A program made the translations under genes and the position numbers. Positions 29,541-30,389 of a stretch of 32,584 bases of DNA are shown here, piece by piece. Under the pieces are notes generated by a model, which searched no databases, was not told the DNA's origin, and saw nothing but the letters and a program-made list of their open reading frames with translations. How positions within the stretch are numbered: position 1 is the stretch's first letter; each line of letters begins with the position of its first letter. The stretch covers positions 1-32,584 of the forward strand of contig NZ_SMKZ01000066.1 of the NCBI RefSeq assembly GCF_004349065.1. Reading direction: 5' to 3'. This DNA is from Jiangella asiatica (GTDB taxonomy: Bacteria; Actinomycetota; Actinomycetes; Jiangellales; Jiangellaceae).

Positions 29541-30389
29541 ATGTCTGACCTCGTCGTCCTCGCCCTCGGCGAGGGTGGGCTCGGAGGCCCTGGTTCGGGT
29601 GGGTCGATCGGCGCGCGGGTCGTCGCCGTCGCCGTCCAGGTGGGACCCGGCAGTGGCGACGCCGACGCGGTCCGGGACCGGGCCCTCGCGGCCGGGGCCG
29701 TCGCGGCGGACGTCGTCGACGCCCGCGATGAGTTCGCCGACCACCACTGCCTCCCCGCGCTCAAGGCCAACGCCCTGCACCCGCGGCTGCTGCCCGCGCT
29801 GTCCACGCCGCTGGTCGCCGAGCACCTGGTTGCCGCCGCGCGCCGGCACGGTGCGCGGACCGTCGCGCACGGGTTCACCGGCGACGCACGGGTCGGGTTC
29901 GAGGCCGGCGTCGCAGCGCTCGCGCCGGACCTGACCTGCCTTGCCGTCGACGCGGTGCCGTCGAGGCCCGCCGCAGCGCTCTGGGGGCCGCCGCGCGACG
30001 GTGACGCCGACGAGCTGGTCGTCACCTTCGACGCCGGCCGGCCGGTCGCAATCGACGGTGAGACCGTCACGATGTGGCAGGCCATCGAGCTGACAACGCA
30101 GCGGGCACGGGCCCAGGGCGTCGGTGACACCGCGATGCCGGGCGCGAGCGTCCTGGCCGCCGCGCACCGCGACCTGGAGGCCGGCACCGTCGAGCGTGAC
30201 CTGGCGCGGTTCAAGGCCGGCGTCGACCGGCGGTGGAGCGGGCTGGTCCACGCCGGCCGGTGGTTCTCGCCGCTGCGGCGGGCCTTGGACGACTTCGTCG
30301 AGACCGCGAACCGGCCCGTCTCCGGCGAGGTCCGGCTGACGTTGCGGGCCGGCGCGGTCTCCCTTGATCATCAGCCGTTGGCCGCGTGA
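29541..30389 (+). CDS. Argininosuccinate synthase-like protein lacking catalytic motifs (putative pseudoenzyme)
   Basis: 282 residues, an uninterrupted frame between argR and argH where argG often sits. The scaffold is recognisably Arg[21 protein letters not shown] (60-79), [19 protein letters not shown] (93-111), [16 protein letters not shown] (120-135), [20 protein letters not shown] (163-182), [16 protein letters not shown] (217-232), [13 protein letters not shown] (240-252), VSGEVRLTL (260-268). The ATP P-loop SGGLDTS is replaced by EGGLGGP (11-17), the TGKGND loop by TGDA, and the segments with the citrulline- and aspartate-binding residues (around SIDQNVWGR and GIKSREIYE in normal ArgG) are missing. 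The C-terminal tail is also lost. It should not make argininosuccinate. GAGGAG lies 11 nt upstream. It is either a conserved pseudoenzyme or a decaying gene still open. Confidence 0.82.
30365..30382. repeat. TGATCATCA repeat half-copy inside the end of the ArgG-like gene
   Basis: TGATCATCAGCCGTTGGC matches the hairpin arm at 4146-4163 in 17 of 18 positions. It encodes the last residues of the ArgG-like protein (from the codon after Ser-Leu to just before the stop). Elsewhere in the window the family is intergenic. Confidence 0.7.

What the first reader, a model, noticed from the sequence alone, without database searches (positions are those of the whole stretch)
29541..30389. ArgG-like pseudoenzyme embedded between argR and argH
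The gene occupies the argG position, in frame and inside the operon (15 nt after argR, touching argH). It keeps the scaffold segments of argininosuccinate synthase nearly residue for residue, for example [20 protein letters not shown], but has lost specifically the functional elements: the SGGLDTS P-loop is EGGLGGP, the TGKGND loop is shortened to TGDA, and the segments binding citrulline and aspartate are deleted. Losing active-site pieces while keeping fold and frame is unlike random decay and suggests a regulatory or structural role, such as partnering ArgH, a true ArgG, or ArgR. A recent pseudogene with a lucky frame is the alternative.
Basis: partly seen in the sequence, partly recalled or inferred. 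Interest (0 to 1): 0.85.

Follow-up and report, generated by a model that had tools for sequence, protein, structure and literature searches.

The report
Conserved dead remnants of arginine gene
In this soil bacterium and dozens of relatives, an old arginine-making enzyme gene whose job is done by a second, distantly related enzyme has been whittled down in place to a smaller protein with no working active site, yet evolution still protects what is left in many of them, which suggests that the leftover has a job of its own.

Summary
In detail: window 29541-30389 encodes a 282-aa ArgG-derived protein between argR and argH, catalytic motifs lost, frame kept. It is not a private oddity. The genome has an intact ArgG of another subfamily elsewhere. 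I read 83 genomes (6 Jiangella, 77 Pseudonocardiaceae) with an argG-derived remnant in the argR-argH slot, 77 to about 360 aa; 81 have an open frame. All 83 carry the other ArgG, against 5 of 77 genomes with a full-length-like gene of the operon type. dN/dS is clearly below a neutral, frame-kept simulation in 11 of 12 clusters. An 88-89-aa form in 23 genomes (genus unnamed) is nearly as constrained (0.11) as argR (0.08). Constraint is strongest at a TFDxGxPVAxDGET core, which a 117-aa form is predicted to fold into a small domain. The window copy keeps 28 of 29 signature positions, against 72 of 105 equally conserved others. Best reading: displaced argG repeatedly became a non-catalytic protein under selection, probably a binding module for an arginine-pathway partner (unknown). 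Against: 6 of 11 sister Jiangella, including the closest, lost it, so it is dispensable there; some clusters are only mildly constrained; selection on the window copy is shown only indirectly.

The parts
29541..30389 (+). argG-derived 282-aa ORF without catalytic motifs (psi-ArgG)
   Evidence: AlphaFold2 model pLDDT 85.2, pTM 0.84, best PDB match ArgG 4xfj, TM 0.86 by query length
29571..29591 (+). former P-loop: EGGLGGP in place of SGGLDTS (model residues 13-21 under pLDDT 50)
29877..29888 (+). shortened TGKGND loop (TGDA)
29946..30008 (+). short linker where about 60 residues of full-length ArgG are missing (SIDQN region)
   Evidence: alignment to family full-length copies; model residues 140-148 under pLDDT 50
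30024..30071 (+). [16 protein letters not shown] core, kept in nearly all remnants
30123..30140 (+). junction where the VEDRLVGIKSREVYE segment is missing
29010..29525 (+). argR, arginine repressor
   Evidence: NF002880 224.5 bits, cut-off 200
30407..31810 (+). argH, argininosuccinate lyase (alternative start 30386)
   Evidence: TIGR00838 597 bits, cut-off 279.5; GGAGG at 30398-30402
23675..29013 (+). argC-argJ-argB-argD-argF upstream on the same strand

Best explanation
The ORF is the operon's original argG (PRK00509-like subfamily), made redundant by a second ArgG (PRK05370-like subfamily) coded elsewhere. Instead of decaying at random, such displaced copies in Jiangella and Pseudonocardiaceae were shortened largely in frame: the ATP, citrulline and aspartate loops went, in smaller forms also the N-terminal domain, and in the smallest the long helices of the C-terminal domain, down to a small strand-helix-strand domain. 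What remains is made and selected as a non-catalytic protein. SHOWN: loss of the tested catalytic motifs, open frames, dN/dS below neutral in most clusters, strongest remaining constraint at the TFDxGxPVAxDGET core, presence of the second ArgG in every such genome examined. INFERRED: that the product works as a binding module or pseudo-subunit for an arginine-pathway protein made beside it (ArgH, the second ArgG, or ArgR; I cannot rank them well, ArgH slightly first), the order of the losses, and that the window copy shares this role.
For: Second ArgG in 80 of 80 remnant genomes and in the 3 others (G120, G328, G172), against 5 of 77 genomes with full-length-like matches of the operon type. 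81 of 83 remnant loci read have an open frame. dN/dS (NG86) 0.11-0.69 in 12 clusters; neutral frame-kept simulation means 1.03-1.52 at 70% GC; clearly below the simulated range in 11 of 12 clusters, B at the edge. 88-89-aa form: 23 genomes, dN/dS 0.11 (CI 0.06-0.16), argR 0.08, argH 0.05, synonymous divergence not reduced. 117-aa form: 11 of 11 the same length, 0.29. Regional dN/dS pooled over 10 clusters (I and K not included): P-loop 0.68, TFDxG region 0.28; in six full-length Jiangellaceae copies 0.05 and 0.11. In 0 of 23 representatives is any of five reference motifs intact letter for letter, while 28 positions, all in the C-terminal domain, are retained in at least 90% and identical in at least 85%. 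Window copy: 28 of 29 signature positions kept, 72 of 105 others, p 0.0009; signature defined without Jiangella (with a 95% threshold 29 of 32 against 86 of 127, p 0.006). Window branch dN/dS 0.39 under F1x4, omega = 1 rejected, 2dlnL 12.9. Models: 117-aa form pLDDT 78.5, pTM 0.69.
Against: 6 of 11 sister Jiangella have no remnant, among them G003, nearest to the window by ArgH (90%). Saccharothrix-type (0.69) and cluster C (0.63) remnants are only mildly constrained, and B (two genomes, 0.60, CI 0.25-1.91, lowest simulated 0.61) cannot be told from neutral. The window branch includes time as a working enzyme, so 0.39 does not prove present selection; under F3x4 the branch differs from the background by only 2dlnL 2.3. 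One locus is frame-broken (L214), one is a remnant overlapping an enlarged argR frame (L234), and L229 has a compensated double frameshift and an early stop; two of five K forms end early. L240 still has SGGLDSS, one conservative change from the P-loop. The start overlap with argR and the closeness to argH are found with full-length argG too, so they are no evidence for a partner. No partner, expression or phenotype data. Diagnostic residues do not settle descent (10 Jiangellaceae-like, 10 Saccharothrix-like), and the first tree joined the window with Saccharothrix remnants at 97, which I read as long-branch attraction.
Confidence: 0.6

Rival explanations
1. Translational bridge: the remnant is kept in frame only because argH needs ribosomes arriving from upstream (coupling, or protection from Rho-dependent polarity); the amino-acid sequence does not matter.
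For: Most remnants start overlapping or next to the argR stop and end within about 100 nt of argH; where the gene is lost the argR stop lies 2-35 nt from the start of the ArgH match; 17-47 stops would be expected under neutral simulation (in-frame stops are excluded from the aligned columns by construction, so this is an expectation, not a test).
Against: Missense change is about 1.5 to 10 times below neutral with the frame kept; constraint is local; argG stop and argH are 83-368 nt apart in the five Phytoactinopolyspora-group genomes.
Confidence: 0.17
2. Slow decay with fold-quality selection: a redundant, still translated protein is lost mostly by in-frame deletions and only variants that stay soluble survive; no function.
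For: Graded series from about 360 to 77 aa, and within Jiangella 282, 99, 90, 77 aa and nothing; mild constraint in clusters A and C; retained positions could simply be the buried core (not tested).
Against: The 88-89-aa form is strongly conserved along its length in 23 genomes; the 117-aa form keeps its length in 11 of 11.
Confidence: 0.15
3. Recent pseudogene with a lucky frame, in the window only.
For: One genome with this length; closest sister lacks it.
Against: None of 11 sisters has a full-length gene in the slot; non-random retention p 0.0009; codon-position GC still 0.82/0.56/0.91.
Confidence: 0.07
4. Still an enzyme, for argininosuccinate or another adenylating reaction.
For: ArgG-fold enzymes with other reactions exist (nitrile synthetase ArtA, PDB 9lei, names).
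Against: P-loop, TGKGND, SIDQN and VGIKSREVYE motifs are not intact in any of 23 representatives.
Confidence: 0.01

Closest known systems
Argininosuccinate synthase ArgG, PRK00509-like subfamily (NF001770, PF00764 + PF20979)
   Same: homologous over both domains, same operon slot, same predicted fold
   Different: none of five tested motifs intact, about 115 residues fewer, score half of the curated cut-off
Argininosuccinate synthase, PRK05370-like subfamily (NF003779)
   Same: the full-length ArgG of the same genome, 839 bits against cut-off 657
   Different: another subfamily, coded elsewhere, not the source of the remnant
NCBIfam NF038212 argG_rel, argininosuccinate synthase-related protein
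   Same: an ArgG relative set apart by curators
   Different: 85 bits against cut-off 425; model of 381 positions
HisZ, regulatory protein of ATP phosphoribosyltransferase (precedent)
   Same: regulatory protein in an amino-acid pathway (PMC9734150, start of abstract in the listing; its descent from histidyl-tRNA synthetase is recalled)
   Different: HisZ is proven biochemically; not ArgG-derived

Membership tests
Argininosuccinate synthase (ArgG equivalog) | score above NCBIfam equivalog cut-off | tested here: not met
   169 vs 334 bits (NF001770), 147.7 vs 268.2 (TIGR00032)
Argininosuccinate synthase (ArgG equivalog) | SGGLDTS ATP-binding loop | tested here: not met
   EGGLGGP
Argininosuccinate synthase (ArgG equivalog) | substrate-binding segments (TGKGND, SIDQN, VGIKSREVYE; roles recalled from ArgG structures) | tested here: not met
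   absent or cut
ArgG-derived pseudoenzyme | homology to the enzyme with the fold kept | tested here: met
   (model made with an ArgG-rich alignment, so the fold is a prediction)
ArgG-derived pseudoenzyme | purifying selection on the non-catalytic protein | tested here: met
   for 11 of 12 clusters incl. Jiangella minis; for the window copy only indirect
ArgG-derived pseudoenzyme | a demonstrated non-catalytic function | not testable with these tools
   no expression, binding or phenotype data
Ordinary pseudogene | dN/dS near 1 and frame breaks | tested here: not met
   exceptions among 83 loci: L214 frame-broken, L234 overlapping an enlarged argR frame, L229 with a compensated double frameshift; cluster B not distinguishable from neutral

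The most novel reading that the evidence does not exclude
When actinobacteria swap their operon ArgG for another ArgG subfamily, the displaced gene is repeatedly and convergently reduced towards one and the same mini-domain, which becomes a new small regulator or adaptor of arginine synthesis, made in step with ArgR and ArgH: a protein function that was hidden inside an enzyme and is set free by losing the enzyme.
Probability: 0.35. Interest if true: 0.87.

Novelty: new variant of a known kind. Interest (0 to 1): 0.72.

Why it matters
It gives a natural, repeated series from working enzyme to conserved 88-residue protein inside one operon slot, with living species at many stages, so that the question whether dead enzymes are kept for a reason can be tested directly. 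It also shows that some proteins of 95-117 residues without catalytic motifs are named argininosuccinate synthase in public databases, which could mislead metabolic models about where arginine is made.

Tried and rejected
Horizontal transfer from Saccharothrix: suggested by shared deletions and by the first tree, dropped because the tree with the window among Jiangellaceae is not rejected and fits better under a site-heterogeneous model; diagnostic residues were a draw. Pure spacer and pure pseudogene: see rivals. Conservation at DNA or RNA level: synonymous divergence in the TFDxG region is like elsewhere (0.186 pooled, others 0.14-0.27) and in the 88-aa gene not below argR/argH. Start overlaps as evidence for a partner: dropped, shared with full-length argG. 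IQ-TREE codon runs gave no omega in my parsing; replaced by my own codon likelihood and NG86. F3x4 omegas (0.11-0.23) run low at this GC, as the simulation shows, so they carry no claim. The genome-contig scan with ArgH listed no Jiangella and served to reach a Pseudonocardiaceae genome handle. Class-wide survey (393 genomes): 191 have a match; the listing is cut, so absence elsewhere is not claimed. Naming the 23 genomes with the 88-89-aa form as Amycolatopsis: dropped on checking, because the Amycolatopsis proteins P0310 and P0312 are of the K form and no call names the hosts of the 88-89-aa form. Literature: (search listings and starts of abstracts only; no paper opened) gave nothing on ArgG-derived pseudoenzymes; this is not proof of absence.

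Full report
WHAT IS THERE. Window 29541-30389 is an open frame of 282 codons, 15 nt behind argR and touching argH. It matches both Pfam domains of argininosuccinate synthase but reaches only half of the curated ArgG score. P-loop, GKGND loop and the substrate segments are changed or deleted. AlphaFold2 with 41 aligned sequences gives pLDDT 85 and pTM 0.84, with the old P-loop and one deletion junction under pLDDT 50; the best solved match is mycobacterial ArgG 4xfj (TM 0.86). The alignment was rich in ArgG, so the fold is plausible, not proven.

THE FULL-LENGTH COPY. The same genome (G000, 7.03 Mb) holds one full-length ArgG at C60:49788-51224, of the PRK05370-like subfamily, 839 bits against a cut-off of 657. 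The operon gene belongs to the other subfamily, PRK00509-like.

WHOSE GENOME. Family mates G019 and G021 have contig lengths equal to those of the Phytoactinopolyspora halotolerans and P. alkaliphila ArgG records, and sister genomes G002, G006, G007 and G011 match contigs of Jiangella rhizosphaerae, J. aurantiaca, J. endophytica and J. ureilytica by length.

THE GENUS. In the 12 genomes of the genus held, none has a full-length gene in the slot. Five keep an argG-derived ORF of 77, 77, 77, 90 and 99 aa, six have no detectable remnant (2-35 nt between the argR stop and the start of the ArgH match), and the window has 282 aa. The five minis start at an ATGA overlap with the argR stop. The nearest sister by ArgH, G003, lacks the gene. 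In the family, the five genomes of group g5 (Phytoactinopolyspora) and G012 have an operon-type full-length argG in the slot and the second ArgG; G014 was seen with the operon type alone, G016 and G018 with the second alone (slot not read), G013 (81% complete) with neither.

BEYOND THE GENUS. A protein search found 305-313-aa proteins of Saccharothrix and Actinosynnema with the same missing segments. A survey of 297 Pseudonocardiaceae genomes, re-examined for 36 and 80 of them, led to 77 genomes whose argR-argH slot I read and found to hold an argG-derived remnant. This is a lower bound: the first survey scored 7 candidates per genome, its list was cut, and 46 of the 126 genomes set aside for the second look were not rechecked. 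Clusters: A Saccharothrix-like (5 genomes, 300-319 aa), B Crossiella-like (2, 291), C (6, 316-359), D Amycolatopsis (11, all 117), E (3, 178), F Kutzneria (5, 149-151), G Actinosynnema-like (3, start uncertain), H (2, 332), H2 (2, 246-247), I (23; 88 aa in 22, 89 in one), K Amycolatopsis-like (5, 87-108), eight singles, one frame-broken locus (L214) and one remnant lying over an enlarged argR frame (L234). With the six Jiangella that makes 83 loci, 81 with an open frame; of these L229 is open only through a compensated double frameshift and stops early, and two K forms stop early.

WHEN IT HAPPENS. The second ArgG is present in 80 of 80 remnant genomes and in the remaining three. Of 77 Pseudonocardiaceae genomes with full-length-like matches of the operon type (taken by handle number, not all such genomes; the slot itself was read in ten Pseudonocardiaceae full-length cases, not all of them among the 77), 5 have it. 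Genomes are related, so I give no p-value.

SELECTION. NG86 dN/dS along minimum spanning trees: A 0.69, B 0.60, C 0.63, D 0.29, E 0.36, F 0.46, G 0.42, H 0.30, H2 0.28, I 0.11, J (Jiangella minis) 0.32, K 0.28; argR and argH of the same genomes 0.03-0.24. In 11 of 12 clusters the observed value lies clearly below all 25 replicates; B lies at the edge (0.60, lowest replicate 0.61, CI 0.25-1.91). The I gene is close to argR in constraint (0.11 against 0.08), with a synonymous divergence of 0.21 against 0.17. So at least this form is a selected protein.

WHERE. Pooled regional dN/dS in ten clusters (I and K not included) is 0.68 at the P-loop, 0.64, 0.37 (DARDEF..NAL), 0.64, 0.63, then 0.28 at TFDxGxPVAxDGET, 0.37, 0.41, 0.49 and 0.76 at the tail; six full-length Jiangellaceae copies show 0.00-0.12 everywhere, with 0.11 at the TFDxG region. 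Of 23 representatives none keeps any of five reference motifs letter for letter; L240 has SGGLDSS, one conservative change away. The TFDxG core, an AHxxL helix and VSGxVRxxLxxG strands are nearly always kept; L228 lacks the TFDxG core. The 117-aa form is modelled as two strands, helices, and four strands (pLDDT 78.5, 47 aligned sequences) and found again inside ArgG structures. The D, I, J and K forms have all lost the helices between AHxxL and VSGxV.

THE WINDOW COPY. Against Jiangellaceae full-length genes its branch has dN/dS 0.39 under F1x4 (background 0.065; omega = 1 rejected, 2dlnL 12.9), and 0.087 under F3x4 (background 0.030; difference 2dlnL 2.3; omega = 1 rejected, 43.2, with a frequency model that runs low here). 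The branch includes time as a working enzyme, so this does not prove present selection. A second test: signature positions were defined from the 21 non-Jiangella representatives among positions at least 98% conserved in 215 full-length proteins. The window keeps 28 of 29 of them, against 72 of 105 other equally conserved positions (p 0.0009; within the C-domain 28 of 29 against 17 of 26, p 0.003); the Jiangella mini L080 keeps 18 of 20 against 11 of 29. Positions within one protein are not independent, and a kept fold alone could explain part of this.

DESCENT. A first LG tree put the window with Saccharothrix remnants (97) and all remnants outside the full-length genes, a long-branch pattern. 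Under LG+C20, on 36 of the 51 rows (15 remnants left out), the tree with the window inside Jiangellaceae is 5.4 log units better than the free search (p-AU 0.75, not rejected), and the remnants L179, L182 and L185 fall among full-length Pseudonocardiaceae genes. The shortening therefore probably arose at least twice; the trees do not prove it.

HOW IT MIGHT WORK. Shown: without intact catalytic motifs, open, selected in several lineages, in the slot between argR and argH in the 83 loci read, and with another ArgG in those genomes. Inferred: the mini-domain binds a partner. Candidates are ArgH, the second ArgG and ArgR. The overlaps with neighbours occur with full-length argG too and do not choose between them. 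Because half of Jiangella lost the gene, the role must be modulatory there, not essential.

KNOWN OR NEW. Non-catalytic regulators in amino-acid pathways are known (HisZ; PMC9734150 seen as a listing and start of abstract). An ArgG-derived one was not found in my searches (listings only). I file it as a new variant of a known kind.

Noticed in passing
P0230, P0231, P0234, P0235, P0237, P0270, P0310, P0312: Proteins of 95-117 aa without catalytic motifs carry the public name 'argininosuccinate synthase' (P0238 and P0239: 'adenine nucleotide alpha hydrolase family protein').
   Followed up: partly
L234 (G172): argR open frame of 261 codons overlaps fragments matching ArgG 1-54 and 370-397; possible ArgR-ArgG-tail fusion, frame not checked.
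   Followed up: no
L214 (G328): argG remnant with a frameshift: ArgG 6-82 and 211-375 in different frames, the second with a possible GTG start; the one clearly frame-broken remnant seen.
   Followed up: partly
L229 (G170): The stretch matching the central helices reads in another frame than its two sides (compensated double frameshift), and the ORF stops before the last ArgG-like residues.
   Followed up: partly
L225, L226, L227 (Actinosynnema type): The ArgG match begins 509-715 nt behind the argR stop, with unexplained extra sequence in between.
   Followed up: no
G079, G089, G179, G187, G192: Five genomes hold both a full-length-like operon-type argG and the second ArgG, possibly the earliest stage of displacement.
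   Followed up: no
G332:C120:41858-42919 and G337:C1:4842900-4843961: A further ArgG-like open frame of 450 aa, weakly matched, besides the small remnant and the second ArgG.
   Followed up: no
window 31860-32381 (-): ORF with a CxxxxC..DHVVPYRHGG tail that looks HNH-like by eye; no NCBIfam match at 1e-10.
   Followed up: no
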